NCBI GenBank assembly: GCA_028717885.1
Contig: JAQUMX010000012.1
Span: forward strand, 1-40,400
Direction: 5' to 3'
Length of the DNA stretch: 40,400 nucleotides
Origin: Candidatus Omnitrophota bacterium
GTDB lineage: Bacteria; Omnitrophota; Gorgyraeia; Gygaellales; Profunditerraquicolaceae
Every line of letters starts with the position of its first letter. The stretch's first letter is position 1. Shown here piece by piece: positions 1,996-40,400 of the stretch. Under the pieces are notes generated by a model, which was not told where the DNA came from, searched no databases, and was given only the letters and a program-made list of their open reading frames with translations. The position numbers and the translations under genes are program-made.

Positions 1996-2000
1996 TGCTG

Positions 2001-2132: not shown

Positions 2133-3329
2133 ATGAAAAAGTTTTTTTTAACAATGCTGGCAGTATTTGGCGGTTTAAGCCTGGTCTTCGCCGCAGAGTC
2201 CATGAAGCCCACTGCTACCGTTACTACTGCTGCTGCAGGTAACAAAGCAAAAGAATTTGTCGTTTACATCGACAAAACCTCGCCGGATAACCATTATATC
2301 CCTTCCGGATGGATGGGGGATTATGGCGATATCAAGATCAACGACCAGGCAACTGACAATCCGCATTCCGGGACAAACTGTATCCGCTTTGATTTTTCTG
2401 CCAAGAAAATCCAAAACCAGGGATGGGCAGGGGTATATTGGCAGAATCCTGCGAATAACTGGGGAGCCAAAAAAGGCGGTTTTGATTTAACCGGAATGAC
2501 CAAGTTAACTTTCTGGGCCCGCGGCGCAAAAGGCGGCGAGATTTTGCAGAAAGTTAAAATCGGCGGCATGGGAATGGAGCCAAAGGCTACCTATCCCGAT
2601 TCTTCATCTACTGAAATGGGGCCGATCGAATTAACAGATACATGGAAACAATATACGGTTAACCTCGTAGGAAAAGACCTTTCCTATATTGCCGGCGGTT
2701 TCTGCTGGGTAATTACCGCAGATCAGAATCCTAATGGCGCAACCTTCTATTTTGATGACATCAAATTCGAGGCTGATCCGACGATGAAAGCAGAAAGCAA
2801 AAAACAGGAAAATATGCCGTTCTATGTTTATTCAGACGGACGTTCAGCAAGCAATCACTATATTCCTTCCGGTTGGATGCCTAACGCAGGAACTGGTAAG
2901 GATATCAAGTACGAAGCAGCAAGTAAGGAAGATCCATATTTAGGCGACACCTGTATCAGAATTGCCTACAAGGATGTTTCCGGAAACAAATGGGCCGGCA
3001 TCTATTGGCAGAACCCGGCAAATAACTGGGGTACGGTAGATGGCGGTTTCGATCTTTCTAAGGCGACTAAATTCACCTTCTGGGCACGCGGTGAAAAAGG
3101 CGGAGAAAGAATCGAAGAGTTTAAAGTCGGCGGTATTATGGGCGAATTTTCCGATTCGGATGTGTCGAATATCGGCCCGGTAATCCTGAATAAGGAATGG
3201 ACCCAATATACTATAGACCTAAAAGGCAAAGACTTATCCTATATTATCGGAGGTTTTTGCTGGGCAACTAATGTTGATGTGAATCCTGAAGGAGTAACAT
3301 TCTATCTAGATGAGCTTAAGTACGAATAA
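2133..3329 (+). CDS. Secreted protein with two tandem homologous carbohydrate-binding-like (jelly-roll-type) domains
   Basis: Signal peptide MKKFFLTMLAVFGGLSLVFA; AGGAGG-type SD; internal duplication (NHYIPSGWM / WAG[VI]YWQNPANNWG / FDLxxxTKxTFWARGxKGGE / GKDLSYIxGGFCW). Confidence 0.75.
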   Translation: MKKFFLTMLAVFGGLSLVFAAESMKPTATVTTAAAGNKAKEFVVYIDKTSPDNHYIPSGWMGDYGDIKINDQATDNPHSGTNCIRFDFSAKKIQNQGWAGVYWQNPANNWGAKKGGFDLTGMTKLTFWARGAKGGEILQKVKIGGMGMEPKATYPDSSSTEMGPIELTDTWKQYTVNLVGKDLSYIAGGFCWVITADQNPNGATFYFDDIKFEADPTMKAESKKQENMPFYVYSDGRSASNHYIPSGWMPNAGTGKDIKYEAASKEDPYLGDTCIRIAYKDVSGNKWAGIYWQNPANNWGTVDGGFDLSKATKFTFWARGEKGGERIEEFKVGGIMGEFSDSDVSNIGPVILNKEWTQYTIDLKGKDLSYIIGGFCWATNVDVNPEGVTFYLDELKYE

Positions 3330-4611
3330 ACAAAATTGCAAGTCGGAAGTTAAAAGTCAAAAGAGGGGCCGCAAGTTTTTTTCACTTGCGGCCTGCTCTT
3401 TATTGCTGTTTTCTATCTTTATGATGGGGATGGCAAAAGCCCCGCAATCGGCGCAGGTTTTCGTGAAAAAACTTTCTAATGGCGGTTATCAGCTTATAGT
3501 AGAAAGAAGGCCTTATATTATCAAAGGGGTTTGTTATAACCCGATACCCGTTGGAGAGAACCACGAATATGATTGGTGGTCTGACCCGAATAAACCCTGG
3601 ATTGCCGACGGAAAACTTATGAAGGCAATGGGCGTAAATACGATCCGTCTTTATCAGTCGCACGATAACCCTGAAGAAGTAAGGGCAGTAATCAGGGACT
3701 TATACCAACTATACGGCATTCGCACGGTAATGGGGGATTGGCTGGGCTACTGGGAATACCCCTGCCCATTTTACGGAAATAAAGATTTTCAGGAAAAAGT
3801 AAAAAAAGAAGTTTTGAATATGGTAGAAGAATATAAGAATGAACCGGGTATGCTTTTTTGGGTATTAGGCAATGAAAATAATTATTCTTGTTTAGGTACG
3901 GTGCGCCCCTGGTCCAGCGAAGAGGTCGACCAGGAAAAAGACCCCTTAAAACAGAAAGCCTTAAAGGCAAAGATTTATTATTCTTTCGTTAATGAGCTGG
4001 CGCAAGAAATCAAAAATATTGACCCTAATCATCCGGTGGCAATGGGAAACGGGGAATTGGTCGGCCTGGGATATGCCAAAGAGTATGCGCCGAATATTGA
4101 CATTATTGCCTGTATTATCTATCGGGGAAAGACCTTCGGGAATCTTTTTAAGTCATTAAAAGCGACTTTTGACAAGCCTGTTTTTATTGCCGAATTTGGC
4201 GCTGACGCCTACGATGCCAATTTGCAGAAGGAAGACCAGAATATGCAGGCTTTTTTCTTAGAATCGCAGTGGCGCCAGATTTATGAGAATTTAGCCAACG
4301 GCAAAGATGGGGAGGGTAATTGCCTGGGAGGAACGGTTTTCGAGTGGAGTGATGAATGGTGGAAACATGAAGAGGGTAGTTCCGACGGCTGGAAAACGCA
4401 CGATACCCTGGCAGGCTGGTTAAATGCCAGTTATTATTTCGATATCAAAGCAAAAGATAATATGAATATGAATGAGGAATGGTTCGGGTTAGTTGCTTTA
4501 TCTCCGGAGATTGCAGACGGGCTTAATAAGCGCATTCCCCGTAAGGCCTATTATGTGGTGAGGGATTTCTGGAAAAAACCGGACTTAAATCACAAGAAAA
4601 GGAAAAGGTAA
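3310..4611 (+). CDS. Secreted glycoside hydrolase (clan GH-A/GH2-like), homologous to the first CDS
   Basis: Signal-peptide-like N-terminus (KFFSLAACSLLLFSIFMMGMAKA); YIIKGVCYNPIPVGE, LGNENNYS, FIAEFGADAYD, FEWSDEWWK shared with CDS 1. Exact start uncertain. Confidence 0.75.
   Translation: MSLSTNKQNCKSEVKSQKRGRKFFSLAACSLLLFSIFMMGMAKAPQSAQVFVKKLSNGGYQLIVERRPYIIKGVCYNPIPVGENHEYDWWSDPNKPWIADGKLMKAMGVNTIRLYQSHDNPEEVRAVIRDLYQLYGIRTVMGDWLGYWEYPCPFYGNKDFQEKVKKEVLNMVEEYKNEPGMLFWVLGNENNYSCLGTVRPWSSEEVDQEKDPLKQKALKAKIYYSFVNELAQEIKNIDPNHPVAMGNGELVGLGYAKEYAPNIDIIACIIYRGKTFGNLFKSLKATFDKPVFIAEFGADAYDANLQKEDQNMQAFFLESQWRQIYENLANGKDGEGNCLGGTVFEWSDEWWKHEEGSSDGWKTHDTLAGWLNASYYFDIKAKDNMNMNEEWFGLVALSPEIADGLNKRIPRKAYYVVRDFWKKPDLNHKKRKR
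3362..3399 (+). other. Strong inverted repeat GGCCGCAAGT-TTTTTTC-ACTTGCGGCC
   Basis: Perfect 10-bp arms (3367-3376 / 3384-3393), extendable by AGAG/CTCT; lies in the signal-peptide coding region of the 3310 CDS. Confidence 0.7.
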
Positions 4612-4617
4612 ATACAA

Positions 4618-6261
4618 ATGACAAAACCCAAAATTCAAATGTCAAATCCGAAGAATAAAGTTTTATCATTGGTTATTTGTGTTTTGGGCTTATTTTGGAT
4701 TTTGTGCTTTTGTATTTGCCGTTATTCTTTTGCCGAGGAAAACAAGTTAACCGTTCTTTCCAAGCAGGTCATGGAGGCAAAAACAGACACCGGGCTTTTC
4801 CCCGTTTTCGAAGAAATCAAAGGAATTTATTTTAAAGACAATAAATACCCGGAGTTCCTCGATTTTTTAAAATCTGTCGGGCGTAAGAAGAGAAATCTGC
4901 AAGGCCTCCTCAACTATTACACGGCGCTAGCGCGTTATAACCAGCTAAAGTATTTGGAAGATATCCAGGATTGGAATGAATACTTTTCCGAAGGAGATAG
5001 CTACCGCGCAGAGTTGGAGAAAAGTTTGAATGCGGCAATTAAAGATTCCAAGGCCGGGGATGCGCTTAATCTATCTGCGCTGTTTCTATCGTATCGATAT
5101 CATAAAGAAAAACAGGACGGTTTGGCTACGGATGCGCTTAAGGCAATCGTGACTAGCGCCGGAGAATTTGCCAAGAAAAACTCCGATACCGCGCTTTTAA
5201 AAGATATCGCGGATCAGCTGATGGTAGGCGGCGAAAAGGCCGAATCGAGAAAATTATACGACCTCTATGTGGAAAAATTATCTACTTCTTCGATGAAGGG
5301 CCCAGAGCTGGGTAATATTGCGCAGGATTTTTACAATAAGGGCAACCTGGAATTATCCGAAGCTGTCTTCGATGCTTATATTAAGCAGTCTGCGGATGCG
5401 TTTCCTAAAGAGGAATTGGTTGCGTTCCTGGTCAATATCGCGAAAAATTTTGCTTATAAAGATAATGGGGTTTCTGACCCGGCTTACGCAGAACGAATCT
5501 TTCAGGAATTGGAAAAAAGAGGGGGGATAGAAGCATTTAACGAAGACTTAATGTATTTGCGCGCCTTTAACTTAGAAAAAATGCAGGACGCAAAAGCGGC
5601 AAAAGAAATTTATATGTTACTGCTTAAAACATATAAACCCAGCAAATACGCCGATGAGGCAGAATTTAAAATCGCGGTCTTCGATACCTATCTTTTGAAT
5701 AACCTCGAAGAAGGCAAAAGCTATTTTGAGGGCTTGGCGAAAAAAGAAAAAATTTCCCCACAGGTAATTTCTGCTTTTTACCAGTTGGGCCTTTTAAGCC
5801 AATGGAAAGAAGATTTTACCGGAGCACTTAATTACTACAATCAGCTGGCCACATTAGCGAAAACCGATTTTCAGGACGAGGTAAATTTGGCTCAGGAAAG
5901 AATCAAGGAGATCAATGACAAAAAGCCTCTGGAATATAATTTAAGGGCCTTTCTGGATGCCGCTTTAAAATCATCTGCTCAAACAGGAAAGGTCAGCCTC
6001 ATCTCCAAGCCTTACAAGGCAAAAAGAAACAGCGAGGTGCTTGTAGATTCCAATATCGTAGTCCCGGAAAGCGGCTGTACCCAGGTAGAATTGCAATATC
6101 TTTGGTCCGGAGACCTGGGTGGCACGGCCCCTGCCAGTACGCAGTCTTCATTTTCCACAAAGTACCAGTATTCAGGCACAAAAATCATTAATGTCGTGGT
6201 GGTAAATCCCAGCGGGATTACGGATTACGGCCTGGATTTGGTGGATACCTCCTCCGATTAA
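4618..6261 (+). CDS. Secreted/membrane-anchored tetratricopeptide-repeat-like protein
   Basis: N-terminal hydrophobic segment, alpha-helical repeat character (BamD/TPR-like), C-terminal Ig-like segment (SEVLVDSNIVVPESGCTQVELQYLWSGDLG). Confidence 0.6.
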   Translation: MTKPKIQMSNPKNKVLSLVICVLGLFWILCFCICRYSFAEENKLTVLSKQVMEAKTDTGLFPVFEEIKGIYFKDNKYPEFLDFLKSVGRKKRNLQGLLNYYTALARYNQLKYLEDIQDWNEYFSEGDSYRAELEKSLNAAIKDSKAGDALNLSALFLSYRYHKEKQDGLATDALKAIVTSAGEFAKKNSDTALLKDIADQLMVGGEKAESRKLYDLYVEKLSTSSMKGPELGNIAQDFYNKGNLELSEAVFDAYIKQSADAFPKEELVAFLVNIAKNFAYKDNGVSDPAYAERIFQELEKRGGIEAFNEDLMYLRAFNLEKMQDAKAAKEIYMLLLKTYKPSKYADEAEFKIAVFDTYLLNNLEEGKSYFEGLAKKEKISPQVISAFYQLGLLSQWKEDFTGALNYYNQLATLAKTDFQDEVNLAQERIKEINDKKPLEYNLRAFLDAALKSSAQTGKVSLISKPYKAKRNSEVLVDSNIVVPESGCTQVELQYLWSGDLGGTAPASTQSSFSTKYQYSGTKIINVVVVNPSGITDYGLDLVDTSSD

Positions 6262-6288
6262 TAAAACTCCTAAACTATTTAAAAATAC

Positions 6289-6317
6289 TTGACTTATAAC
6301 TTCTTTAGTAGTATAAA
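6289..6317 (+). promoter_or_regulatory. Candidate sigma70 promoter TTGACT-N17-TATAAA
   Basis: -35 at 6289-6294, -10 at 6312-6317, 17-bp spacer, upstream of the ROK gene. Confidence 0.6.
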
Positions 6318-6324
6318 TAAATGA

Positions 6325-6491
6325 AGTCAAAATTTACGGAACGAAGTGAACGTAAATTTTATGACTGAATTTATCCTTGACACGTATCTTTATTAAAGAT
6401 TTTTGTAAGTGTCAAGGATTAATTCGCACACGCGGGAGATAATTAGGGCTAGCCGCTATAACTTACTCGAGTTATCGTGTTCGTAAGTTAT
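6325..6491 (+). promoter_or_regulatory. Structured leader or operator region with three strong inverted repeats upstream of the ROK gene
   Basis: IR1 6325-6366 (AAAATTTACG/CGTAAATTTT plus AGTC/GACT); IR2 6373-6419 (ATCCTTGACAC/GTGTCAAGGAT with nested ATCTTTA/TAAAGAT); IR3 6458-6491 (ATAACTTAC/GTAAGTTAT). Confidence 0.6.
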
Positions 6492-6523
6492 GTGCTCATT
6501 AACTTTTTTACTACTAATTGGTT

Positions 6524-7756
6524 ATGCGCACAACTGATTTCGAAAAAGAGGCTTTAAGCGAAAAAGAAAAGCGCAATATCAGTATTCTGGATATTTTGCG
6601 CCGCCGCGGACCGGTGAGCCGGCCGGATATCTCCAAGGAGATGGGGGTAAATGTCGTCACCATTTCCAACTATATCGATGATTTTATCCGGCAGAATATC
6701 GTTTATGAAAAGGAACTGGATATTTCTGAAGGCGGCAGAAGGCCAGCCCTCCTGGATTTAAACCCACGCGCAGGATACATTATCGGTGTCGGGTTAAATC
6801 TCATGAACATGGTCGGCCTCCTGATAGATTTTAAAGGCAACATCATTACCAAGACCCAGATTGCCCGCCCAAAACCGTCGGTGAGGGAAATTACCGAATG
6901 CGTCCTGGAAATTATCCGCGAAATCTTAAGGCGTTCCAAAGAATATACCCCGCAGATTAAAGGTATCGGCGTAGGTATCGCCGGGTTGGTGAATAAAAGA
7001 GACGGCTCCATTCATTGGCCGCAGAAGATGGACCATTATTATGCCTATGCGTCGGTAGATATGCCTTTTAAAAGCTTGATCGAGCGCGAATTTAACCTCC
7101 CGACATTAATCGAGAATGATGCTACCGCCGCCTGTTTCGGCGAACATTGGCTGGATTTAAAACGCGATTTTAAAAATGTGCTTTATATGTTTAGCGGTGT
7201 GGGCTGCGGAATTATGGTCAATGGCGAAATGTATAACGGCACAGATGGTTTCGCCGGAGAAATCTCGATCTATAATTACAAGGAACAGGATGCTTTTAAA
7301 TGCGATGTGGGTAAGGATTGTTTCTTAAAACGCTGGGAGATAGATTTAGGGATTATTGACGATACGCGTTCGCTATTGGCCCGGGATAAAGAAGGGGCGG
7401 AGCGGTTTTTTAAGCTTACTTCAAGTAATATCAATAACGTAGATTTAAAAAGTGTTTTTATTGCGGCCCGCGCAAAGGATGCGATTGCTAGTGAAGCGTT
7501 GAAATTAGCCAGCCGCAGGCTGGGAATAAAGATAGCATTTTTAGCCAACCTCTTTAACCCTCAGATCGTGATTATCGGAGGCGGTTTTGAAGAGGCCGGC
7601 GATGAGTTCTTGAATAATTGCGTACTTACCGTCAAAGACTGGGCTTTTAGGGAAGTAACGGAAAATTTAAAAATCGTTTATTCGCAACTACGGGAAAATG
7701 CCGTAGCACTCGGGGCAGCGAGTCTCGTAATGCAAAAGACCTTTGCCCTTTCTTAA
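6524..7756 (+). CDS. ROK family transcriptional regulator (HTH + ROK/sugar kinase-like domain)
   Basis: N-terminal HTH (ILRRRGPVSRPDISKEMGVNVVTISNYI) and ROK domain (IGVGLN..., IENDATAACFGEHW, FSGVGCGIMVNGEMYNGTDGFAGEI). ATG at 6524 preferred over TTG at 6518. Confidence 0.85.
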   Translation: MRTTDFEKEALSEKEKRNISILDILRRRGPVSRPDISKEMGVNVVTISNYIDDFIRQNIVYEKELDISEGGRRPALLDLNPRAGYIIGVGLNLMNMVGLLIDFKGNIITKTQIARPKPSVREITECVLEIIREILRRSKEYTPQIKGIGVGIAGLVNKRDGSIHWPQKMDHYYAYASVDMPFKSLIEREFNLPTLIENDATAACFGEHWLDLKRDFKNVLYMFSGVGCGIMVNGEMYNGTDGFAGEISIYNYKEQDAFKCDVGKDCFLKRWEIDLGIIDDTRSLLARDKEGAERFFKLTSSNINNVDLKSVFIAARAKDAIASEALKLASRRLGIKIAFLANLFNPQIVIIGGGFEEAGDEFLNNCVLTVKDWAFREVTENLKIVYSQLRENAVALGAASLVMQKTFALS

Positions 7757-7771
7757 AGGCTATAAAAGCCG

Positions 7772-8989
7772 ATGGAGCAAAAAATAAAATTTATTATTAT
7801 CGGGCTCATCGCGGTCTTGGTGGTGAGTTTTGCTCTTAATATCTTTACCCTCCTTTCAAAAGAACAGGCCCTGCGCAGCAATAATACCCTTCAGGAAGAT
7901 AAATCCTCTTTACTTAAGGAAGTCGAAACCAGTAAACAAAAAGTAGGCCAGCTACAGAAGCAGCTTATCGAGCTTAACCAGGGGGTTGATAAGCTTAATA
8001 AAGAAAAAGAGGAGATCCAGAAAAAATATGATTTGGTAGATAAAGCCCGCCAGACTTTAGTGGACCAGGTAAAAGCCCTAAAAGAGAAAGAAGCCTCGTC
8101 TAAAACTTCCGCTTCAGCTACTGCACAGCCAGCAAGCAATGCTTTGGGTAATGATGCTTATTGGGCCGGGATCTTAAAGCAGAAAAAAGATCTGGAATGG
8201 CAATTAGATACGGTGCGCAGCGAACTAAAAACCGCGCAGATCAATAATGAACAACTGCAAAAAGAAAAGAGCGCTTTGGAGCTGGAGGCGGGCAACCTCG
8301 GCCGGGAAAAACAGGATTTAGGCAGGCAATATGAATTTGTCCAGAAGCAACTGGAATATAACAAGAAGATGATGGAATCTATCGCCCTGGAGTTAGTCGG
8401 AGAAAAGAATGACAAGTTGCAGATCCAGGATTCATTTAAGGCGATTAAAACCGAGAATGCAATGCTGCGCCGGCAGTTAAAGAACCTTAATGACCGAAAA
8501 ATTAGCCTGGAGAGGAAGCTTGCCACTGCCCAGGAAAAATCTCATACGTTGGAATCCAGGTTTAATGAGATGGATGTGCTTTTAAAGGATAAGATGCTGC
8601 AACTGGAAAAGATTAGTAGGACTGTTCCCTCTTCGGAGGCCACGGCAAAAGAGGAGCCGGTAGAGTTGACTCCGATAGTAGTGCGGCCGCCATCCGAAAC
8701 AACTACTATGCCTTCAATAACTACGCCCGCGGCCGAAACTTCTGCTGCAAGCATTCCGCAGAAAGAAGGAAAAATTTCTGCGGTTAATCGGGATAATAAT
8801 TTCGTGATCATCGACCTCGGCGAAGAACAAAGTGCCAGAGTGGGCGATGTGTTTAATGTTTATAATAAAGCCAATAAGCCTATCGGGGTAGTAGAAATCA
8901 TCGAGACGCGCAAGGCCATCTCTGCTTGCGACATCCAGAGAGAAAACGAAAAAATCCAGGTGGGTGATAAGGTAAGGCTGAAATCATGA
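7772..8989 (+). CDS. Membrane-anchored coiled-coil protein with C-terminal SH3/FlgT-C-like domain
   Basis: N-terminal TM helix, long heptad-rich coiled coil, C-terminal GKISAVNRDNNFVIIDLGEEQSARVGDVFNVY...VGDKVRL. Confidence 0.6.
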   Translation: MEQKIKFIIIGLIAVLVVSFALNIFTLLSKEQALRSNNTLQEDKSSLLKEVETSKQKVGQLQKQLIELNQGVDKLNKEKEEIQKKYDLVDKARQTLVDQVKALKEKEASSKTSASATAQPASNALGNDAYWAGILKQKKDLEWQLDTVRSELKTAQINNEQLQKEKSALELEAGNLGREKQDLGRQYEFVQKQLEYNKKMMESIALELVGEKNDKLQIQDSFKAIKTENAMLRRQLKNLNDRKISLERKLATAQEKSHTLESRFNEMDVLLKDKMLQLEKISRTVPSSEATAKEEPVELTPIVVRPPSETTTMPSITTPAAETSAASIPQKEGKISAVNRDNNFVIIDLGEEQSARVGDVFNVYNKANKPIGVVEIIETRKAISACDIQRENEKIQVGDKVRLKS

Positions 8990-20878: not shown

Positions 20879-21726
20879 TGCGCAACTCCCGTCGTAGCGA
20901 AAAAATTGCTTTCTTTTTTCTCTTCCTCGCAACACTTCTAATTGTTGTTCCGGTAGGGCTAATCATTGCTATTATTATCCAGAAAGGCCTACCGGCAATT
21001 AATTGGCAGTTTCTTTCTGATATGCCGCGCTCCGGTATGCGCGCCGGAGGGATCCTCCCGGCAATTGTCGGGACAATTTACCTGGTAGGAGGGGCGATTC
21101 TTTTTGCCTTGCCGATTGGCTTGTTAGCGGCGATCTACTTAAGCGAATATTCCAGGGATAATTTATTGACCCGGATGATTAAATTGGCAATTGTCAATTT
21201 GGCCGGTGTGCCTTCCGTAGTCTACGGGCTTTTTGGCCTGGCTTTGTTCGTAGTTTTCTGTAAATTCGGCGCTTCGATTCTTTCCGGGTCTTTAACCTTG
21301 GGGATTATGATCCTGCCTTTGATTATTACTTCTTCGCGCGAAGCTTTGGAAAGCGTGCCTGATTCTTTTCGCGAGGTAAGCCTTTCTTTGGGAGCAAGCA
21401 AATGGCAGACGATCCGCCACATTGTTTTGCCGAATGCGGTTCCCGGAATCCTTACCGGAACGATTTTAGGCTTAGGCAGGGCAGCCGGAGAAACTGCGCC
21501 GATTCTTTTCACCGTCGCTGCTTTCTATCTGCCGCAATTACCGAAATCACTTTTTGACCAGGCAATGGCATTGCCTTATCATCTCTATGTAATTTCTACC
21601 CAGGTGCCTAATGTCGATGAAAAGATCAGGTATGGCACCGCCCTGGTTTTGCTGTTTCTGGTTTTATTTATGAATTTGGTGGCAATTATCATCCGTTACC
21701 ATTTCAGAAAGAAGAAAAAATGGTGA
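20878..21726 (+). CDS. pstA: Phosphate ABC transporter permease PstA
   Basis: AGVPSVVYGLFGLALFVVF, SLSLGASKWQTIRHIVLPNAVPGILTGTILGLGRAAGETAPILFT. Confidence 0.92.
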   Translation: MRNSRRSEKIAFFFLFLATLLIVVPVGLIIAIIIQKGLPAINWQFLSDMPRSGMRAGGILPAIVGTIYLVGGAILFALPIGLLAAIYLSEYSRDNLLTRMIKLAIVNLAGVPSVVYGLFGLALFVVFCKFGASILSGSLTLGIMILPLIITSSREALESVPDSFREVSLSLGASKWQTIRHIVLPNAVPGILTGTILGLGRAAGETAPILFTVAAFYLPQLPKSLFDQAMALPYHLYVISTQVPNVDEKIRYGTALVLLFLVLFMNLVAIIIRYHFRKKKKW

Positions 21727-22466
21727 AGGTGGAAGTAAAAAACCTGAATACCTGGTTTGGCCTGTTACATGTTTTAAAAGGGGTCACTATCGATATTCAA
21801 GCGAATGAAATTTTAAGCGCAATCGGGCCTTCGAACAGCGGAAAAACAACGTTCCTGCGCATGTTAAACCGTTTGAATGAGCTGGAAACGAATTTTAAAA
21901 TGGAAGGGCTTGTCAATTTAGAAGGCAAGGATGTGCGCGCAATCGATGTGGAGCTGTTGCGTAAAAAAGTCGGCATGGTTTTTGCGCTGCCGCTGCCTTT
22001 GCCATTATCGATTTTTGAAAATGTGGCTTACGGGGTGAGGATGCACGGCATGCATAACAAAGGGAAAATTATTGAAAGGGTAGAAGAGGCATTAAAAAAA
22101 GCTTATATTTGGGAAGAGGTAAAAGACAGGCTGGAAGAATCTGCTTTTAAATTATCAGGAGGGCAACAGCAGAGGCTTTGCATTGCCAGGACCCTGGCAG
22201 TCGAACCGGAAGTAATTTTATTCGACGAGCCTTGCTCCGGGCTAGACCCCATTTCTACCGCCAAGGTCGAGGAGGCAATGTTAAAATTAAAAGAAAATTA
22301 TACAATCGTACTGGTGACGAACAACGTAAAACAGGCAGCGCGCGTGGGAGACCGCACCGCTTTTTTTCTTTCCGGAGAATTGGTGGAATTGGATAAAACT
22401 GAAAAGATGTTTACTGCTCCGGCTGATCAACGCACCGATGATTATATCAGAGGAAAATTCGGATAA
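21720..22466 (+). CDS. pstB: PstB-like ABC ATPase 1, degenerate Q-loop and H-loop
   Basis: Walker A GPSNSGKTT; Q-loop position VFALPLPLPLS; signature LSGGQQQRLCIAR; Walker B VILFDEP; H-loop TNN. Confidence 0.85.
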   Translation: MVKVEVKNLNTWFGLLHVLKGVTIDIQANEILSAIGPSNSGKTTFLRMLNRLNELETNFKMEGLVNLEGKDVRAIDVELLRKKVGMVFALPLPLPLSIFENVAYGVRMHGMHNKGKIIERVEEALKKAYIWEEVKDRLEESAFKLSGGQQQRLCIARTLAVEPEVILFDEPCSGLDPISTAKVEEAMLKLKENYTIVLVTNNVKQAARVGDRTAFFLSGELVELDKTEKMFTAPADQRTDDYIRGKFG

Positions 22467-23222
22467 ATGGCGAAAATCAAAGTAAATAATTTGAATCTTT
22501 GGTACGGAAGTTTTCAGGCGCTAAAGGGCGTGTACGCGAATTTTGCCGAAAAGAAAATTACCGCGATTATCGGGCCTAGCGGATGCGGAAAGTCGACAAT
22601 GCTGCGGGTCTTTAACCGGATGAATGACCTGATTGAAGGCGTGCGCACCTCCGGAGAAATTATTATCGATAACCTTAATGTGTTGGGTGAAGAAACGGAT
22701 TTGGTAGCGTTACGCAAAAAAGTCGGAATAGTTTTTCAGCGGCCGAACCCGTTTCCGCTTTCGGTTTATGAGAATATTGTTTTCGGTATCCGCGTGCATG
22801 AACAGCCAAGAAAGAAGGCTGAGCTTAACGGAATAGTTGAAGAGAGTTTAAAATCCGTGCTTTTGTGGGATGAGCTAAAGGATAAATTAAAAATGCCGGC
22901 CCTGCACTTGTCTTTGGAGCAGAAACAGAGGCTTTGTATTGCGCGTTTGATTGCGGTTAAGCCGGATGTGGTTTTGATGGATGAGCCGTGTTCGACTTTG
23001 GACCCTCAGGCAACCGCGAGAATAGAAGAATTAATGCGTGAACTTCGCAAAAATTATACTATAATTATAGTCACGCATAATATGCAGCAGGCAGCGCGGG
23101 TTTCCGATGATACCGGATTCATGCTTTTGGGTGAACTGGTGGAATTTGGGGCAACGCACGAGATTTTTACCGCGCCGAAAGACAAGCGCACCGAGGATTA
23201 CATTACCGGAAGATACGGTTAA
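22467..23222 (+). CDS. pstB: PstB-like ABC ATPase 2, degenerate signature motif
   Basis: Walker A GPSGCGKST; Q-loop VFQRPNPFPLS; signature LSLEQKQRLCIAR; Walker B VVLMDEP; H-loop THN. Confidence 0.88.
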   Translation: MAKIKVNNLNLWYGSFQALKGVYANFAEKKITAIIGPSGCGKSTMLRVFNRMNDLIEGVRTSGEIIIDNLNVLGEETDLVALRKKVGIVFQRPNPFPLSVYENIVFGIRVHEQPRKKAELNGIVEESLKSVLLWDELKDKLKMPALHLSLEQKQRLCIARLIAVKPDVVLMDEPCSTLDPQATARIEELMRELRKNYTIIIVTHNMQQAARVSDDTGFMLLGELVEFGATHEIFTAPKDKRTEDYITGRYG

Positions 23223-25464: not shown

Positions 25465-26643
25465 ATGAAAAATTTAATCTCTAAGAAAGTTCAGGAAATG
25501 CAGCCTTCCGGCATCCGGAAATTTTTTGACCTGGTGCTAGGGATGAAGGAAGTAATTTCCTTAGGCGTGGGGGAGCCGGATTTTGTTACTCCCTGGAGTA
25601 TCCGCGAAGCAGGGATTTATTCTCTGGAGGAAGGTTTTACTTCCTATACTTCAAACAAGGGGCTGTATAAATTAAGGCTGGGAATCTCGCGTTATTTGGA
25701 GAGCCGCCATAATTTGAAATACTCTCCGGATGAAGAGATCCTGATTACCGTCGGGGTAAGCGAGGCAGTGGATTTAGGCTTACGCACTTTGATTAATCCT
25801 GGAGATAAAATTTTAATCCCGGTTCCCAGTTATGTTTCTTACGGCCCGGTAGCCGAGCTTGCCGGAGGCGTGCCTATATATATCGATACAAAAGAGGATA
25901 ATTTTCGGCTTACTCCTAAAAGGCTAAAGCAATATTTACACAAGAAGCCCAAGGCAATCATCTTAAATTATCCCACTAATCCTACGGGCGTTTGTTATAC
26001 GAAAAAAGAATTAAGCGAGATCAATAAAATTTTGTTGAAGCATAATATTTTCTGCATTACAGACGAAGTTTATGGCGATTTAAGCTATGATTTCGAGCAC
26101 ACGCCTTTTCCTACATTGCCGGGGGCAAGGAATAATACGCTTTACTTAAACGGTTTTTCCAAGAGCTATGCCATGACCGGCTGGCGCGTAGGGTTCGCCT
26201 GTGGGCCGAAAGAAGTAATTGCTGCCATGACCAAGATCCATCAGTACACGATCATGTGCGTAGCGATAACCAGCCAGATGGCTGCTTACGAAGCTTTGAT
26301 TACCGGAAGAAAGCCGGTAGAGGAAATGAAACGGGAGTATCGCAGAAGAAGAGAACTGATAATCCCGGGGTTAAATAAATTAGGCCTGGATTGTATTATG
26401 CCTGAAGGCGCATTTTATGCTTTTCCGAGCGTAAAAAGAACCGGGATGAAAGCTTTGGAATTTGCCGAAGGCCTGCTTAAGGAAGAAAAAGTCGCAGTTG
26501 TGCCGGGTACGGCTTTCGGAGCCAGTTATGCCGACTATCTACGAATTTCCTATGCCTCTAGCTATGAAAATTTAAAAGAGGCGTTAATCCGTATAGAAAG
26601 ATTTTTAACTAAGAAAGGGGTAAGCAATGGCAAAAAGGACTAA
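25465..26643 (+). CDS. Pyridoxal-phosphate aminotransferase, class I/II
   Basis: SLGVGEPDFVTPWSIREA, LNYPTNPTGVCYTKKEL, NGFSKSYAMTGWRVGFACGP, LRISYASSYENLKEAL. Confidence 0.92.
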   Translation: MKNLISKKVQEMQPSGIRKFFDLVLGMKEVISLGVGEPDFVTPWSIREAGIYSLEEGFTSYTSNKGLYKLRLGISRYLESRHNLKYSPDEEILITVGVSEAVDLGLRTLINPGDKILIPVPSYVSYGPVAELAGGVPIYIDTKEDNFRLTPKRLKQYLHKKPKAIILNYPTNPTGVCYTKKELSEINKILLKHNIFCITDEVYGDLSYDFEHTPFPTLPGARNNTLYLNGFSKSYAMTGWRVGFACGPKEVIAAMTKIHQYTIMCVAITSQMAAYEALITGRKPVEEMKREYRRRRELIIPGLNKLGLDCIMPEGAFYAFPSVKRTGMKALEFAEGLLKEEKVAVVPGTAFGASYADYLRISYASSYENLKEALIRIERFLTKKGVSNGKKD

Positions 26644-27958
26644 AGCAGAGATCTTGAAAATCGCCAAAGATCGCAAAGTAAAATTTATCCGCCTCTGGTT
26701 TACCGATGTTTTAGGGTTTCTTAAAGGTTTTGCAATTACCGTCGATGAATTAGAGGGGGCACTTGAAGAAGGAATGGGTTTTGACGGCTCTTCGATCGAA
26801 GGGTTTGCACGTATCGAAGAATCCGATATGATTGCCCGGCCTGACCCGGATACTTTCGCGATTATCCCCTGGCGTAGCGGGGATGAATATAGTGTGGCGA
26901 GAATGTTCTGCGATATTTATGAGCCAAGCGGCAAGCCCTTTGAAGGAGACCCGCGTTATGTTTTAAAACGCAATCTCGCTAAAGCAAAAGAACTGGGTTT
27001 TAGCTATAACGTAGGCCCGGAACTGGAATATTTTTATTTTAAAGATGCCACTCATCCGGCAACACTTGACCAGGGGGGCTATTTTGATTTAGTGCCTTTG
27101 GATGTGGCGCAGGATTTACGAAGAGACACAATACTTACCATGCAATCTTTAGGGATCAATGTTGAATACAGCCATCATGAAGTGGCTCCTTCCCAGCATG
27201 AAATCGATTTACGCTATACCGACGCTTTGACCATGGCGGATAATGTAATGACTTATCGCATGGTGGTAAAAGAAACCGCGCGTAACCACGGTGTTTATGC
27301 TACTTTTATGCCTAAGCCGATTTTTGGCATTAATGGCTCGGGGATGCATGTGCACCAGTCTTTGTTTAAGGGCAATAAAAACGCCTTTTTTGATGCAAAA
27401 GGAAGATATCATCTTTCTGAAGCAGGCATGTCTTATACAGCAGGCTTGCTTAAGCATGCGCAGGAAATTACCGCGATTACCAGCCAGTGGGTAAATTCCT
27501 ATAAACGCTTAGTGCCGGGTTATGAAGCGCCGGTTTATATCTGCTGGGCAAATATGAACCGTTCAGCATTGATCCGCGTGCCGATGTACAAGCCGGGAAA
27601 AGAAAAAGCTACGCGTATCGAGTACCGTTCGCCGGACCCTGCATGCAATCCTTACCTTGCGTTTGCCGTGATGCTGGCAGCTGGTTTAGACGGGATGAAA
27701 AACAAATTGAAACTTGGCAATCCAGCCAACGATAATATTTACCACATGACCGAGAAAGAAAGAAACGCGCTTGGGATTAAATCCCTGCCTGAGGACCTCT
27801 TGGAAGCAATCCGCATTGCCGAAAACAGCAGCCTGATCAAGGATTGCCTGGGGCAGAAATTATTCGAGTACTTTATCCGTAACAAAAAAATGGAGTGGGA
27901 TGAATATAAAGCGCAGGTAACCCAATACGAAGTCGATAAATACCTGCCGATCCTTTAA
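26627..27958 (+). CDS. glnA: Glutamine synthetase type I
   Basis: FDGSSIEGFARIEESDMIARPDP, MPKPIFGINGSGMHVHQSL, RIEYRSPDPACNPYLAFAVMLAAGLDG. Confidence 0.96.
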   Translation: MAKRTKAEILKIAKDRKVKFIRLWFTDVLGFLKGFAITVDELEGALEEGMGFDGSSIEGFARIEESDMIARPDPDTFAIIPWRSGDEYSVARMFCDIYEPSGKPFEGDPRYVLKRNLAKAKELGFSYNVGPELEYFYFKDATHPATLDQGGYFDLVPLDVAQDLRRDTILTMQSLGINVEYSHHEVAPSQHEIDLRYTDALTMADNVMTYRMVVKETARNHGVYATFMPKPIFGINGSGMHVHQSLFKGNKNAFFDAKGRYHLSEAGMSYTAGLLKHAQEITAITSQWVNSYKRLVPGYEAPVYICWANMNRSALIRVPMYKPGKEKATRIEYRSPDPACNPYLAFAVMLAAGLDGMKNKLKLGNPANDNIYHMTEKERNALGIKSLPEDLLEAIRIAENSSLIKDCLGQKLFEYFIRNKKMEWDEYKAQVTQYEVDKYLPIL

Positions 27959-27966
27959 TTTGTGCA

Positions 27967-28692
27967 ATGGCAAAGAGTGATAAGCATTACAAGGTTTACC
28001 TGGAACAGATCGAGTTGCTTTCGAAAGTAGCAAACCTGATTACCTCCGGGCTCTATCTGGAAGAGCTTTTAAAAATTATCGTCCAGATCACGGCGCAGAT
28101 CATGCATTCGAAAATCTGCTCTCTTATGTTGCTGGACCCGGATAAAAAAGAATTGGTAGTCAAGGCTACCCAGTCTATCTCCGAAAGCTACAATAAGAAG
28201 CCGAATATAAAATTAGGAGAAGGCCTTGCCGGGATCGTGGCAAAAGAGAATAAGCCGCTCTGTGTCCTGGATGTAAAAAAAGACGAGCGTTATTTAAGCC
28301 GTGATATTGCTAAGAAAGAAAGCCTTTGTTCTTTGGCAAGTGTGCCATTGGCGGTTAAAGGAAAAGTGATCGGAGTGCTAAATGTCTACACCTCCAAAAA
28401 ACATGTTTTTTCCAAGCCGGAACTTGCGGTTTTAACCGCTGTAGCGGGCCAGGCGGCAGTGGCAATTGAGAATGCTGAACTGGATTTAAAAGTACGTAGC
28501 GCCGAAGAGGCGTTGACTACCAGGAAACTGGTCGAGCGCGCAAAAGATATTCTCTCCCAGGAAGCAAATATTACGGCTTCCGAGGCATTTCGTTTGATTC
28601 AGAAACAAAGCATGGACACCAGAAAGACCATGCGGGAAATCGCAGAAGCGATTATTCTAGCGAAAGATTTAAAAAATAAGGGCCCAAGATAA
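27967..28692 (+). CDS. GAF-ANTAR domain protein (putative RNA-binding antiterminator)
   Basis: GAF domain (ICSLMLLDPDKKELVVKATQSIS, LGEGLAGIVAKENKPLCV, AVLTAVAGQAAVAIENAEL) followed by ANTAR (KLVERAKDILSQEANITASEAFRLIQKQSMDTRKTMREIAEAII). Confidence 0.85.
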   Translation: MAKSDKHYKVYLEQIELLSKVANLITSGLYLEELLKIIVQITAQIMHSKICSLMLLDPDKKELVVKATQSISESYNKKPNIKLGEGLAGIVAKENKPLCVLDVKKDERYLSRDIAKKESLCSLASVPLAVKGKVIGVLNVYTSKKHVFSKPELAVLTAVAGQAAVAIENAELDLKVRSAEEALTTRKLVERAKDILSQEANITASEAFRLIQKQSMDTRKTMREIAEAIILAKDLKNKGPR

Positions 28693-35341: not shown

Positions 35342-38300
35342 ATGAAGAGAAAAATTGTTTTTCAATTCATTATTTTTGTTTTTTCTTCAATTTATCCTGC
35401 CTTTGCCGATACCTATACCTGGCAAGAAACTAATGACGGTAACTGGGCAACGACCTCCAACTGGTCTCCTGCCGGCGCCCCCGGAACAGGAGACAGCGTT
35501 ACTTTTAACAGCGCGAGCGATAATGCCATCATAGATGTAGGAAGCGGTCTTACGATCAAGGACATACAGTTCGATACTGCCAGCGCGGCGGCGTATACCA
35601 TAGGTAGCGGCGGGGCGAAAAGCCAGACCCTTACCCTGGATGATGGCGGGTCGATAACAATGAGCAGCGCTGTCGCAAATAACGAAACGATCAATTCCAA
35701 CATAACACTCGGCAATGGTACCGCTACCGCGTCTTTTAGCCTTACCAATGATACCGCAGGCAATGCACTGACTATTGCCGGTGCTATTACCGGTTCCACA
35801 GGAGCATATACCAGGACTTTGACTGTTACTGGTGACGGGACTATTACTTTAAGCGGCGCTATCACTGATGGCGGCGGTACCGTTGGGCTCACAAAAAGCG
35901 GTAGCGGTACACTAAATACGTCTGGCATCAATACTTATACCGGTACGACCAGAATCAGCGGCGGTACACTTGTGACCGGTTCCTATGCTCTTTCCAGTAC
36001 CAGCGCGATGGTATTAGATGATGTAGCGGGGGCAGAGTTATCAATAACTTTGGCTAATCCGACACTTACATCGGCTGTCGGTTCGCTCTCCGGAGGCGGT
36101 AGTAACGGCGGTAATGTTTCTTTAGGCGGCAAGATGCTTACTATTGGCGACGATAATACCGACACTACATATGCTGGTGTAATAAGTGGAGGTGTTGGTA
36201 GGATAACCAAGGTTGGCACTGGCACGCTTACGCTTACAGGCGCTAATACGTACGGTGGTATGAACTACCTCAATGGCGGTGCGATAAAAATAAACGCTTC
36301 GAATAATATAGGAAGCGCTGGTAGTGTGAATAAACTATTTTTTAACGGCGGCACCCTTGAATCAAGCGGCAATACTTATTCTCTAGGCACTACCCGTACT
36401 ATTACCCTAAACGGTGGCAACGGCGCTATCCAGACCGACGCCGATACTCTTACTGTCGACGGCACCGTCGATACCAACGGTAATACCTTCACCGTAAAAG
36501 GCGCAGGTGATACTGTAGTTAGCGGTGTAATAAGCGATACCGGCAATATTTCTAAATCCGGCACCGGCACCTTAACCTTAAGCGGCAATAATACCTATAC
36601 AGGCACAACTACATTAAGCGAAGGCACCCTTAAAGCAGGAATTGCCACTTCAGCCTTAGGCTCTAACTCTGCAGTTACCGTCTCTTCAGGCTCTACCCTT
36701 GACCTAAACGGCTACGACGAAACTCTAGGTTCTCTCGCCGGTGCAGGCACCTTAACCAACGAAGGAGCCACAGATAATACTGTGACAATAGGAGGTGACA
36801 ATACCTCTACTACATTTTCCGGCTTGATCAAAGACGGCACAACCAATAAGACCCTTCTTGCCAAATCCGGCACTGGTACTCTCACCTTAAGCTCTGCCAG
36901 TACCTTTAGCGGCGGTACCACCATAAGTAGCGGTACTTTAGCTGTCGGCAACAGCACTGCCTTAGGCATCGGTAATATTACCAATAGCGCGACATTAGAT
37001 TTAGGCACGACTAATTTCACTCCTAGCGGTAGCTACACCCAGAGCTCCGGTTCCACCTTAAAGCTGACCGCGAATTCTTCTTCTAACTTCGGCAAGCTTA
37101 CAGATAACTCTGTATCCTTGGATGGCAATAGCACAGTTGCCGTTACTTTAGGAGGGTATATTCCTAACAATGCTACATTAAAAGTAGTAGATACTTCTGC
37201 CTCAGGTATTGGCTCAACTCCATCTACCATTACCTCCAGCAACTCCAAAATAAGCTTCTCGGCTTCCGGCTCTAGCGGTGATTTAGTCTTGACTGCCAAC
37301 CGTTCCGCTAGCGGATTCCAGAGCTTAGGCAATAATTCCAATGCCAATGCCGTAGGCAATGTACTTGATAACATCAATGACCCTACCTCTGATATGGCCA
37401 CTGTTCTTAATACCCTGGATAGCCTCTCCAGCGGCGATGTTACCTACTCTGAAAATACCCTTACCCCCATAGCAGATGGCGCAGTTACCCAATCCTCTAA
37501 CCAGGTATTAAACCAATTCTTAAACAATGTCTCTGATCATTTAAACAATGTCCATTTCGCCAAAGCTGCCAATACTTCTACCGGTATCTCAACCGGAGAA
37601 GGTTATTTAAATAACCTGGATATCTGGGCGCAAGCCCTGGGCGATTATGCCCATCAGGGAGCCAGAGGCTTAAGTAATGGCTACAACGCTACTACCTGGG
37701 GCTTGAGTGGCGGGGCGGACCTGCCTCTAGGCAACAAGCCTCTTCGTTTAGGAATAGGCTTAGGCTATGGGCAGACCTACATCCGTTCCAAGGATAATTG
37801 CGCGCGTACCAACGTGGACAGCATCCCGTTTATTATTTACTCTAGCTACGATCATCCCAAATATCATTTTTACCTGGATTCCGCATTCACTTTTAACTAT
37901 AACATGTATAAAGGCTCCCGCCAGGCTACAGTAGGCTCTATAGAACGCACTGCTGCTTCTGATTACCACGGCCAGCAATATTCCTGCTACTTCGAAGGCG
38001 GCTATACCTTTGGTCTTGCTTATAAAAAACTCCTGCTTACCCCCATAGGCTCTTTTAACTATGCGCACCTGCGCCTGTCTTCCTACACGGAAAGTAACGC
38101 CGATTCTCTGAACCTGCATGTTGACCATCAGGATTACAATATGGTACAAACCGGTATCGGCTTTAAATTATCCCGTATGATCAAACGTAAATTCGCTACC
38201 CTTAATCCTGACATCCATTTCAAATGGCTCTATGATTTTATTGCAGATAACCAATCAACCACTGCCAGCTTTACCGGCGGTGGTACTGCATTCGCCACTT

Positions 38301-38455
38301 CCGGGTTTAAGCCTGCTAAATCCAGTTATAACTTCGGGCTTAAGCTTAACCTCTCCACCAACCGCAGCATTGGCCTTGACCTTGGCTACGACTTCCTCTT
38401 CAAGGAAGATTACTATGAGCACGCTGGGACAGTAAAGGCAAAATACAGCTTTTAA
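35342..38455 (+). CDS. Autotransporter (type Va) with PATR-type beta-helix passenger and C-terminal beta-barrel
   Basis: Signal peptide ending AFA|DTYTW; repeated GTGTLTLSGNNTYTGTTTLSEGTLKAG units; C-terminal autotransporter beta-domain ending KAKYSF. Confidence 0.88.
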   Translation: MKRKIVFQFIIFVFSSIYPAFADTYTWQETNDGNWATTSNWSPAGAPGTGDSVTFNSASDNAIIDVGSGLTIKDIQFDTASAAAYTIGSGGAKSQTLTLDDGGSITMSSAVANNETINSNITLGNGTATASFSLTNDTAGNALTIAGAITGSTGAYTRTLTVTGDGTITLSGAITDGGGTVGLTKSGSGTLNTSGINTYTGTTRISGGTLVTGSYALSSTSAMVLDDVAGAELSITLANPTLTSAVGSLSGGGSNGGNVSLGGKMLTIGDDNTDTTYAGVISGGVGRITKVGTGTLTLTGANTYGGMNYLNGGAIKINASNNIGSAGSVNKLFFNGGTLESSGNTYSLGTTRTITLNGGNGAIQTDADTLTVDGTVDTNGNTFTVKGAGDTVVSGVISDTGNISKSGTGTLTLSGNNTYTGTTTLSEGTLKAGIATSALGSNSAVTVSSGSTLDLNGYDETLGSLAGAGTLTNEGATDNTVTIGGDNTSTTFSGLIKDGTTNKTLLAKSGTGTLTLSSASTFSGGTTISSGTLAVGNSTALGIGNITNSATLDLGTTNFTPSGSYTQSSGSTLKLTANSSSNFGKLTDNSVSLDGNSTVAVTLGGYIPNNATLKVVDTSASGIGSTPSTITSSNSKISFSASGSSGDLVLTANRSASGFQSLGNNSNANAVGNVLDNINDPTSDMATVLNTLDSLSSGDVTYSENTLTPIADGAVTQSSNQVLNQFLNNVSDHLNNVHFAKAANTSTGISTGEGYLNNLDIWAQALGDYAHQGARGLSNGYNATTWGLSGGADLPLGNKPLRLGIGLGYGQTYIRSKDNCARTNVDSIPFIIYSSYDHPKYHFYLDSAFTFNYNMYKGSRQATVGSIERTAASDYHGQQYSCYFEGGYTFGLAYKKLLLTPIGSFNYAHLRLSSYTESNADSLNLHVDHQDYNMVQTGIGFKLSRMIKRKFATLNPDIHFKWLYDFIADNQSTTASFTGGGTAFATSGFKPAKSSYNFGLKLNLSTNRSIGLDLGYDFLFKEDYYEHAGTVKAKYSF

Positions 38456-39402: not shown

Positions 39403-39564
39403 AGAGCGGCCTCGCTCATTATTTACCTGCCGTTCCTGCAGAAGATTTTTTCTACTTCGGCGATCGGCTGGAAAGAATGGCTGGTATTATTCCTGTTTAT
39501 GACAGTAATTTTCTGGCTGGAGGAATTAAGAAAGAGGTTTCTTGTTAAGGGAAATAAGCCTTGA
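39403..39564 (+). pseudogene. C-terminal remnant of a cation-transporting P-type ATPase
   Basis: Reading frame from 39403: RAASLIIYLPFLQKIFSTSAIGWKEWLVLFLFMTVIFWLEELRKRFLVKGNKP*, resembling Ca2+/cation P-type ATPase C-termini; an in-frame TAG lies upstream and no intact upstream ORF exists. Confidence 0.6.
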
Positions 39565-39588
39565 CAAGGTTGCTAGGCATGTTATAAT
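39561..39588 (+). promoter_or_regulatory. Near-consensus sigma70 promoter TTGACA-N16-TATAAT
   Basis: -35 39561-39566, -10 39583-39588. Confidence 0.8.
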
Positions 39589-39604
39589 TTAAATGAAAAT
39601 TGAA

Positions 39605-39621
39605 GGCACAAGGTATGTGCC
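39605..39621 (+). promoter_or_regulatory. Leader hairpin A with AAGG loop
   Basis: GGCAC-AAGGTAT-GTGCC. Confidence 0.6.
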
Positions 39622-39634
39622 AAAAGAGAAGGAC

Positions 39635-39663
39635 AAAGGCGTTTCACAAGAACGCCTTTTTTT
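39635..39663 (+). terminator. Intrinsic terminator T1
   Basis: AAAGGCGTT-TCACAAG-AACGCCTTTTTTT: 9-bp stem and T7 run. Confidence 0.85.
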
Positions 39664-39714
39664 GTTGTCTTTCGCTTTTCTATGTAGAAAAAAATAAAGG
39701 AATGTTTCCTTAAA

Positions 39715-39733
39715 GTCGGCAAGGATTGCTGAC
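39715..39733 (+). promoter_or_regulatory. Leader hairpin B with AAGG loop
   Basis: GTCGGC-AAGGATT-GCTGAC (one G-U pair). Confidence 0.55.
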
Positions 39734-39761
39734 AGAGGCAACCTTTCTTTAGTTAAACAAT

Positions 39762-39805
39762 GGCGTTTTATGCCGTATTTTCCTGCGGCGTAAAACGCCT
39801 TTTTT
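39762..39805 (+). terminator. Intrinsic terminator T2 immediately upstream of the GAF-ANTAR ATG
   Basis: GGCGTTTTA-(TGCCG...CGGCG)-TAAAACGCC then TTTTTT; ends 6 nt before the ATG at 39812. Confidence 0.85.
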
Positions 39806-39811
39806 ATTTCC

Positions 39812-40400
39812 ATGCATAAATCATTTACCGAACAAATTAAGGCATTGGCAAAGATCAGTAAGGCAATCACCTCGGATTTCTATCTGGATGATATTTTACG
39901 CCTGATAGTCAATGTTACTGCTGAGCTTTTGGATTCCAATATTTGTTCTCTGATGCTCCTGGATGAAAAAACCGGGGAATTGCAGGTGCGTGCCACGCAA
40001 AGTATAAGCGAAGAATACAACAAGAAGCCCGCGCTTAAATTAGGGGAGGGCATTGCCGGAAAGGCCGCCCAGGAGAATAAGCCGATTGCCATCAAGGATG
40101 TTGCCAAGGAAAAGGAATATAAGCATAAAGACATTGCCAGAAAAGAAGGCTTGGTTTCATTATTGTGTGTTCCTCTGTCAGTAAAGGGAAGGGTGATCGG
40201 GGTAATTAATTGTTATACGCCTAAACTCCATGTTTTTAGCGAAGAAGAGATCGAGGTATTGACTACGATTGCTAACCAGGCGGCAGTGGCAATTGAGAAT
40301 ACGGAATTAATGAAGAAGAGCAAGACTTTTCAAGAAGAGTTGGAAATGCGTAAACGTATTGAGCGTGCCAAGGGAATATTGATGCGCGATGAACATTTAA
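39812..40400 (+). CDS. GAF-ANTAR domain protein, paralog of 27967..28692; 3' end truncated by window
   Basis: Manual translation: MHKSFTEQIKALAKISKAITSDFYLDDILRLIVNVTAELLDSNICSLMLLDEKTGELQVRATQSISEEYNKKPALKLGEGIAGKAAQENKPIAIKDV...EMRKRIERAKGILMRDEHL (start of ANTAR). Absent from the ORF track because it runs off the edge. Confidence 0.85.
   Translation, partial: MHKSFTEQIKALAKISKAITSDFYLDDILRLIVNVTAELLDSNICSLMLLDEKTGELQVRATQSISEEYNKKPALKLGEGIAGKAAQENKPIAIKDVAKEKEYKHKDIARKEGLVSLLCVPLSVKGRVIGVINCYTPKLHVFSEEEIEVLTTIANQAAVAIENTELMKKSKTFQEELEMRKRIERAKGILMRDEHL

What the first reader, a model, noticed from the sequence alone, without database searches (positions are those of the whole stretch)
39561..39812. 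Tandem [AAGG-loop hairpin + terminator] leader upstream of a GAF-ANTAR gene: candidate autoregulatory antitermination system
A near-consensus promoter (TTGACA-N16-TATAAT) is followed by hairpin A (GGCAC-AAGGTAT-GTGCC), terminator T1 (AAAGGCGTT...AACGCCTTTTTTT), hairpin B (GTCGGC-AAGGATT-GCTGAC) and terminator T2 (GGCGTTTTA...TAAAACGCCTTTTTT). T2 ends 6 nt before the ATG of a gene encoding a predicted ANTAR RNA-binding protein. The unit occurs twice, with the same AAGG loop start and the same GGCGTT/AACGCC terminator core. Established knowledge: ANTAR proteins (AmiR, NasR, EutV families) bind stem-loops whose loops carry A at position 1 and G at position 4, and prevent terminator formation; the AAGG loops fit A1/G4. 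Caveats: the loops here are 7 nt (or 5 nt if A-U closes) rather than the usual 6, and I did not find a clean second A1/G4 hairpin directly beside each terminator. There is no Shine-Dalgarno between T2 and the ATG, so T2 could also block translation.
Basis: partly seen in the sequence, partly recalled or inferred. Interest (0 to 1): 0.82.

Follow-up and report, generated by a model that had tools for sequence, protein, structure and literature searches.

The report
Triple ANTAR attenuator before nitrogen regulator
An uncultured Omnitrophota bacterium appears to switch its nitrogen-assimilation genes on with a known kind of RNA switch (a protein that stops transcription from ending early), here stacked three times in front of the gene for the switch protein itself.

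Summary
A consensus promoter, hairpin A, terminator T1, hairpin B and a second terminator stand before a GAF-ANTAR gene that the contig end cuts off. This gives the published ANTAR dual-hairpin antiterminator. A covariance model built only from P1+P2 hairpins of other genes in other genomes finds exactly two sites in the whole own genome at E<=1: the leader of glnA and this leader. The leader is conserved before orthologous GAF-ANTAR genes, where glutamate synthase, amt, glnK and glnA follow. The relatives are Candidatus Omnitrophota.

The leader is better read as three tandem units, the middle one with a poor U-tract. Differences from the textbook motif: 7-nt P1 loops, a P1 nested inside the second terminator hairpin, and an extra 'outer stem' that only read-through RNA can form. 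It is a new member of a known kind (ANTAR attenuation of nitrogen genes) in a phylum where I found no report of it. Whether its own product or the glnA-linked second GAF-ANTAR protein acts on it is open.

The parts
39561..39588 (+). Promoter TTGACA-N16-TATAAT with TG before the -10
   Evidence: 12/12. TTGACA and a -10 hexamer at the same place in 16 relatives.
39605..39621 (+).
   Evidence: Five of five pairs show changes on both sides over 88 aligned sites. Model hits.
39631..39644 (+). P2 of unit 1: GGAC-AAAGGC-GTTT, hexaloop with A1 and G4, overlaps the 5' arm of T1; 9-nt linker from P1
   Evidence: Folds when RNA ends at 39645. Matched by model R3, which contains no terminator and no leader sequence.
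39635..39663 (+). T1, intrinsic terminator AAAGGCGTTT..AACGCCTTT plus U-run
   Evidence: conserved in all leaders.
39622..39679 (+). Outer stem around T1 (39622-39626/39675-39679 and 39628-39636/39665-39673); only read-through RNA can form it
   Evidence: fold; consensus fold of 7 leaders; own-own duplex stronger than cross-genome, permutation p 0.0004 over 24 leaders, none in 22 other sites.
39676..39691 (+). P1 of unit 2: TTTTC-TATGTA-GAAAA (G4 kept; loops AGCGTAA, AGTGTTT in relatives)
39697..39711 (+). Candidate P2 of unit 2: AAGG-AATGTTT-CCTT (A1, G4)
   Evidence: Sequence; relatives have hexaloops AATGTT, AATGCA here; weakest of the three P2s.
39695..39751 (+). T2-like hairpin of unit 2; poor U-tract in the window, better in relatives
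   Evidence: -22.2 kcal/mol, z -3.9; consensus fold with changes on both sides.
39715..39733 (+).
   Evidence: with P2 of unit 3 it is matched weakly by R3 at 39721-39771, E 0.17.
39755..39768 (+). P2 of unit 3: AAAC-AATGGC-GTTT, hexaloop A1/G4, overlaps the 5' arm of T3; 21-nt linker from P1
39762..39805 (+).
39812..40399 (+). GAF-ANTAR gene, class ii (196 aa, cut by contig end)
   Evidence: Pfam GAF_2 1e-26; ANTAR 3.3e-5, first half only; aligned with full-length orthologues.
26627..27958 (+). glnA next to the second GAF-ANTAR gene (context)
27967..28692 (+). Second GAF-ANTAR gene (class i), a possible alternative regulator of the leader
   Evidence: ANTAR 4e-18.

Best explanation
The leader is a stack of three ANTAR-type transcription attenuators. 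RNA polymerase starts at the consensus promoter. Without active ANTAR protein, the U-tailed hairpins T1 and T3 (and perhaps the weak T2) end transcription before the GAF-ANTAR gene. When the GAF domain reports nitrogen need, ANTAR dimers bind the A1/G4 loops of P1 and P2 in each unit. Holding P2 folded takes away the 5' arm of the terminator, so polymerase goes on into the GAF-ANTAR gene and, as relatives suggest, the nitrogen-assimilation genes behind it. Shown here: the sequence elements, mutual exclusion of P2 and T, conservation and covariation of P1, conservation of P2, the same motif before nitrogen genes, and conserved RNA-contact residues in orthologues. Inferred: protein binding, antitermination itself, the signal (glutamine or 2-oxoglutarate would fit), which of the two GAF-ANTAR proteins acts, and what lies downstream in this organism.
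For: R3, a P1+P2 model from 21 sites before other genes in other genomes, without terminators and without the window, gives only two own-genome matches at E<=1: glnA leader E 3.2e-5 and window unit 1 E 0.0065. The glnA leader (L248 5258-5334, 22 nt before the ATG) has a P1 hexaloop GCAC-ACCGTA-GTGC and P2 over its terminator, in a contig with amt, glnK and gltB. Over 88 aligned sites 90% of P1/P2 cells pair, against 29-54% when slid by 1-3 columns; 62 cells changed on both sides against 21.7 in shuffles. Position 4 is G in 76/76 P1 loops and 73/74 P2 loops. Orthologous genes share leader and promoter and are followed by glutamate synthase FMN-domain protein, amt, glnK, glnA, gltB. Sites in relatives precede glnA, GSIII, amt, glnK, gltB. 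Motif and ANTAR domain co-occur (p 0.001-0.01). EutV contact residues R142, K143, K149, E160, Y164, R168, M172, R175 are kept in the full-length orthologue.
Against: P1 loops here have 7 nt, not 6. P2 of unit 1 is weak in the window (two G-U pairs). The linker in unit 3 (21 nt) is longer than the 5-12 nt that works in E. faecalis (PMC3369931). R1-R3 were trained on sites chosen by eye or by similarity, so loop letters of weaker hits are partly model-driven. The window's ANTAR domain is truncated. No expression data.
Confidence: 0.87

Rival explanations
1. Cascade instead of autoregulation: the leader is an ANTAR attenuator, but the protein that opens it is the glnA-linked class i GAF-ANTAR, and the class ii protein is a target.
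For: Both genes are in this genome. Several relatives with only one ANTAR match, such as G089, G090 and G094, still carry several sites before amt, GSIII, glnK and sigma-like genes, so one ANTAR protein suffices for the regulon.
Against: Class i has F for EutV Tyr164 and Q for Arg168 by motif register, while class ii keeps both. The leader is tied to class ii genes across the phylum.
Confidence: 0.3
2. Two ordinary terminators in series with incidental hairpins, insulating the gene from upstream transcription.
For: T1 and T3 are good intrinsic terminators.
Against: They lie between a conserved consensus promoter and its gene. The P1 and P2 loops are conserved, P1 covaries, and the same combination stands before nitrogen genes elsewhere.
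Confidence: 0.04
3. Attenuation by another agent (riboswitch, T-box, leader peptide, or another RNA-binding protein) that uses these hairpins.
For: Rfam holds no match that says otherwise; antiterminator protein binding was not tested.
Against: No Rfam match to known riboswitches or T-box; the loop rule (G4 in nearly all), the P2/terminator overlap and the nitrogen gene set are those published for ANTAR (PMC3369931, PMC8934654), and the gene behind the leader encodes an ANTAR protein.
Confidence: 0.05
4. Control mainly at translation: T3, 12 nt before the ATG, hides the start site.
For: No Shine-Dalgarno before 39812; ANTAR RNAs of actinobacteria often cover the ribosome site (PMC8164766).
Against: T1 and T3 both carry long U-runs, and many genes in the window lack a Shine-Dalgarno. 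It could act in addition.
Confidence: 0.08

Closest known systems
ANTAR dual-hairpin antiterminator of Enterococcus faecalis eut (EutV; PMC3369931, PMC8934654)
   Same: Two hairpins with A1/G4 loops, P2 overlapping the terminator's 5' arm, ANTAR protein encoded in the same system, several attenuators in one regulon.
   Different: EutV has a receiver domain, here a GAF domain; eut P1 loops are hexaloops, here mostly 7 nt in ANTAR-gene leaders; eut has single attenuators in several places, here three are stacked in one leader, with a P1 inside the previous terminator hairpin and an outer stem around T1.
ANTAR nitrogen regulons predicted in Desulfotomaculum and Pelobacter (PMC3369931)
   Same: Attenuators before glutamate synthase, P-II, ammonium transporter and glutamine synthetase genes.
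   Different: Another phylum. The paper counts 13 attenuators in six units of D. acetoxidans, so stacking may already exist there; I could not compare the leaders.
NasR and AmiR systems
   Same: ANTAR output domain, A1/G4 hairpin before an intrinsic terminator, nitrogen metabolism. NasR ANTAR is a sequence relative (4akk).
   Different: Other sensor domains and other genes.

Membership tests
ANTAR-target dual-hairpin RNA | Two stem-loops with A at loop position 1 and G at position 4 | tested here: met
   Units 1 and 3 in the window; G4 in 76/76 P1 and 73/74 P2 loops of relatives, A1 in 68/76 and 60/74.
ANTAR-target dual-hairpin RNA | Both loops are hexanucleotides | tested here: inconclusive
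   P2 loops are 6 nt in units 1 and 3. P1 loops are 7 nt in units 1 and 3; relatives show 44 with 7 nt and 32 with 6 nt. R3, trained on 6-nt P1 sites, aligns the extra base as an insertion.
ANTAR-target dual-hairpin RNA | P2 overlaps and excludes an intrinsic terminator | tested here: met
   P2 39631-39644 against T1 39635-39659; P2 39755-39768 against T3 39762-39799.
ANTAR-target dual-hairpin RNA | Linker between hairpins short (5-12 nt in E. faecalis; 2-25 accepted in actinobacteria) | tested here: met
   9 nt in unit 1, 5 nt in unit 2, 21 nt in unit 3, the last beyond the E. faecalis range (PMC3369931, PMC8164766).
ANTAR-target dual-hairpin RNA | Binds an ANTAR protein and antiterminates | not testable with these tools
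   Needs EMSA and in vitro transcription.
ANTAR-domain regulator | Complete three-helix ANTAR domain above Pfam cut-off | tested here: inconclusive
   Cut by the contig end: 24.0 bits on the protein, 27.7 in the genome search, cut-off 27.3. Full-length orthologues score over 75 bits.
ANTAR-domain regulator | RNA-contact residues of EutV (Tyr164, Met172, Arg142, Lys149, Glu160, Arg168, Arg175) | tested here: met
   Kept in orthologue L059 aligned to EutV 6wsh/6ww6; only R142, K143 and K149 fall in the window's truncated protein.

The most novel reading that the evidence does not exclude
The three attenuators are mechanically coupled. The outer stem around T1, which only RNA read past T1 can form, uses the P2 5' arm of unit 1 and the P1 5' arm of unit 2. 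If polymerase leaks through T1 without ANTAR protein, the outer stem forms and hides the next ANTAR site, so the leak is stopped downstream; if the protein holds P2, the next site stays free. The stack would then be a leak-proof, switch-like attenuator and not three independent gates.
Probability: 0.2. Interest if true: 0.7.

Novelty: new member of a known kind. Interest (0 to 1): 0.46.

Why it matters
Omnitrophota are uncultured, and the library I could search holds no report of how they control nitrogen genes by RNA. A conserved ANTAR attenuator before glnA, amt, glnK, glutamate synthase and the regulator gene gives a concrete, testable nitrogen circuit for the phylum. It shows that ANTAR attenuation of nitrogen genes extends to candidate phyla, and that the P1 loop may have 7 nt, which strict hexaloop searches would miss. 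The stacked arrangement poses an open question: why three attenuators in one leader.

Tried and rejected
Rfam at gathering thresholds: no match in the window. R1's other own-genome hits that I opened (C14, C24) lie among ribosomal-protein/TrkA-like and pyrophosphatase-like genes and look like plain terminators; R3 does not report them. Some reverse-strand R1 hits are terminator symmetry and were left out of the loop counts. The first alignment of non-leader sites (A6) misplaced P2 in three rows, so a smaller set (A7) was used. Rejected: pairing of A1 with loop base 7, because base 7 varies among A, C, G and T in relatives. Papers on GnfR and Clostridium NitR were not found in the open library, so those systems are not used as evidence. 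The covariation of P2 alone is modest (two pairs with changes on both sides): its support is mainly conservation and the R3 test.

Full report
Observation. The single strand from 39600 to 39812 folds at -82.5 kcal/mol against -47.7 (sd 4.2) for shuffles. The contig ends at 40400, inside the gene, so the ANTAR domain is only half present.

What was missed. Each terminator's 5' arm can form another small hairpin with an A1/G4 hexaloop: GGAC-AAAGGC-GTTT (39631-39644) at T1 and AAAC-AATGGC-GTTT (39755-39768) at the last terminator. P2 and terminator therefore exclude each other. RNA ending at 39645 folds into P1 plus P2; RNA ending at 39663 folds into P1 plus T1. That is the published anatomy of an ANTAR antiterminator (PMC3369931, PMC8934654).

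Relatives. ANTAR domains occur in 91 of 108 genomes of the same family. Named contigs with the same lengths as some of these loci are Candidatus Omnitrophota MAGs. About 25 genomes carry a second, high-scoring class (class ii) of GAF-ANTAR gene; most of those whose upstream region is held have the same leader: TTGACA, a -10 hexamer 16-17 nt away, P1, P2/T1, and usually a middle and a last unit. Behind the gene come a glutamate synthase FMN-domain protein, often a small sigma-70-like protein, Amt, GlnK, glutamine synthetase and GltB.

Independent tests. (a) Leave-one-out: model R2 from 19 relatives finds window 39602-39663 at E 2.2e-12; the next window match is 0.03. (b) Model R3 was built only from P1+P2 of 21 sites before other genes in other genomes, with no terminator. 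In the whole own genome it reports two sites at E<=1: the leader of a glutamine synthetase gene on contig C39 (E 3.2e-5) and this leader (E 0.0065). Unit 3 (39721-39771) is a weak further match, E 0.17 in 49 kb. (c) Over 88 aligned sites, all five P1 pairs show changes on both sides; cells pair at 90% against 29-54% when partners are slid by 1 to 3 columns. P2 varies less (two pairs with changes on both sides), so for P2 the argument is conservation and test (b). (d) G at loop position 4 in 76 of 76 P1 loops and 73 of 74 P2 loops; the models favour these letters, so this is not fully independent. (e) Of 66 non-leader matches examined, most stand 10-250 nt before glnA, type III glnA, amt, glnK, gltB, a sigma-like gene or a conserved exported-protein gene of the same clusters. 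(f) Motif and ANTAR domain co-occur (65 of 91 against 5 of 17 genomes at E<0.01, p 0.001, not corrected for relatedness).

The protein. The orthologue in L059 aligns with EutV (6wsh/6ww6) and keeps the residues that contact RNA in the crystal structure: R142, K143, K149, E160, Y164, R168, M172, R175. The GAF domain's nearest named models are PtsP and NifA (far below their cut-offs). That is only a lead; from general knowledge both of those GAF domains respond to nitrogen status (glutamine or 2-oxoglutarate).

Three units, not two. Between T1 and hairpin B lie TTTTC-TATGTA-GAAAA (39676-39691) and AAGG-AATGTTT-CCTT (39697-39711), followed by a long hairpin 39695-39751 whose loop holds hairpin B. 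Many relatives have a clear middle attenuator (GGAT-AATGAC-GTCC overlapping a good terminator). In the window this middle terminator has a poor U-tract and may be a remnant. Hairpin B is then P1 of the third unit, nested in the second terminator hairpin.

Outer stem. In leaders of this kind, the purine-rich stretch before T1 pairs with the pyrimidine-rich stretch just after its U-run. Own-own duplexes are stronger than cross-genome ones (-10.2 against -8.4 kcal/mol, permutation p 0.0004, 24 leaders), and nothing is seen in 22 other sites. I noticed it by eye before testing, and the leaders are related. Only read-through RNA can form it, and it uses the P1 arm of the next unit, hence the coupling hypothesis in the section on the most novel reading.

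Deviation from the motif. P1 loops have 7 nt in units 1 and 3 and in most ANTAR-gene leaders, also outside Omnitrophota, but 6 nt at most other sites. Base 7 varies, so it is not a sixth pair. The linker in unit 3 is 21 nt.

Who acts. A second GAF-ANTAR gene lies 12 kb upstream behind glnA (27967-28692). Some relatives with a single ANTAR match still have several sites. The leader could thus be opened by its own product, by the other protein, or by both.

Verdict. A real, conserved ANTAR attenuator stack before a GAF-ANTAR gene; new member of a known kind. The literature search in the open library found no ANTAR RNA reported for Omnitrophota; subscription papers were not searched.

Noticed in passing
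27967-28692: Second GAF-ANTAR gene directly behind glnA and before the ATP synthase genes; Y164 and R168 of EutV are F and Q by motif register.
   Followed up: partly
L248 (G000:C39) 1-8378: Contig with amt, glnK, an ANTAR-type leader 22 nt before glnA, then gltB; it begins with what looks like the 3' half of a terminator before amt. Possibly the continuation of the window's operon.
   Followed up: partly
L248 30-190: Three near-identical hairpin-bearing repeats of about 46 bp between the terminator remnant and amt.
   Followed up: no
21720-23222: Two adjacent PstB-like ABC genes; the first has an unusual Walker A (GPSNSGKTT).
   Followed up: no
35342-38455: 1037-aa protein with repeated strand motifs and a C-terminal autotransporter-like barrel, between the ATP synthase genes and the leader.
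   Followed up: no
L062 4530-5063 and relatives: Small sigma-70/ECF-like protein conserved in the ANTAR/amt gene clusters, itself often preceded by an ANTAR-type site across the phylum.
   Followed up: partly
L113 379-435, L106 1501-1561: Motif matches before a KdpA-like gene and a hybrid-cluster-protein-like gene, outside classic nitrogen assimilation.
   Followed up: no
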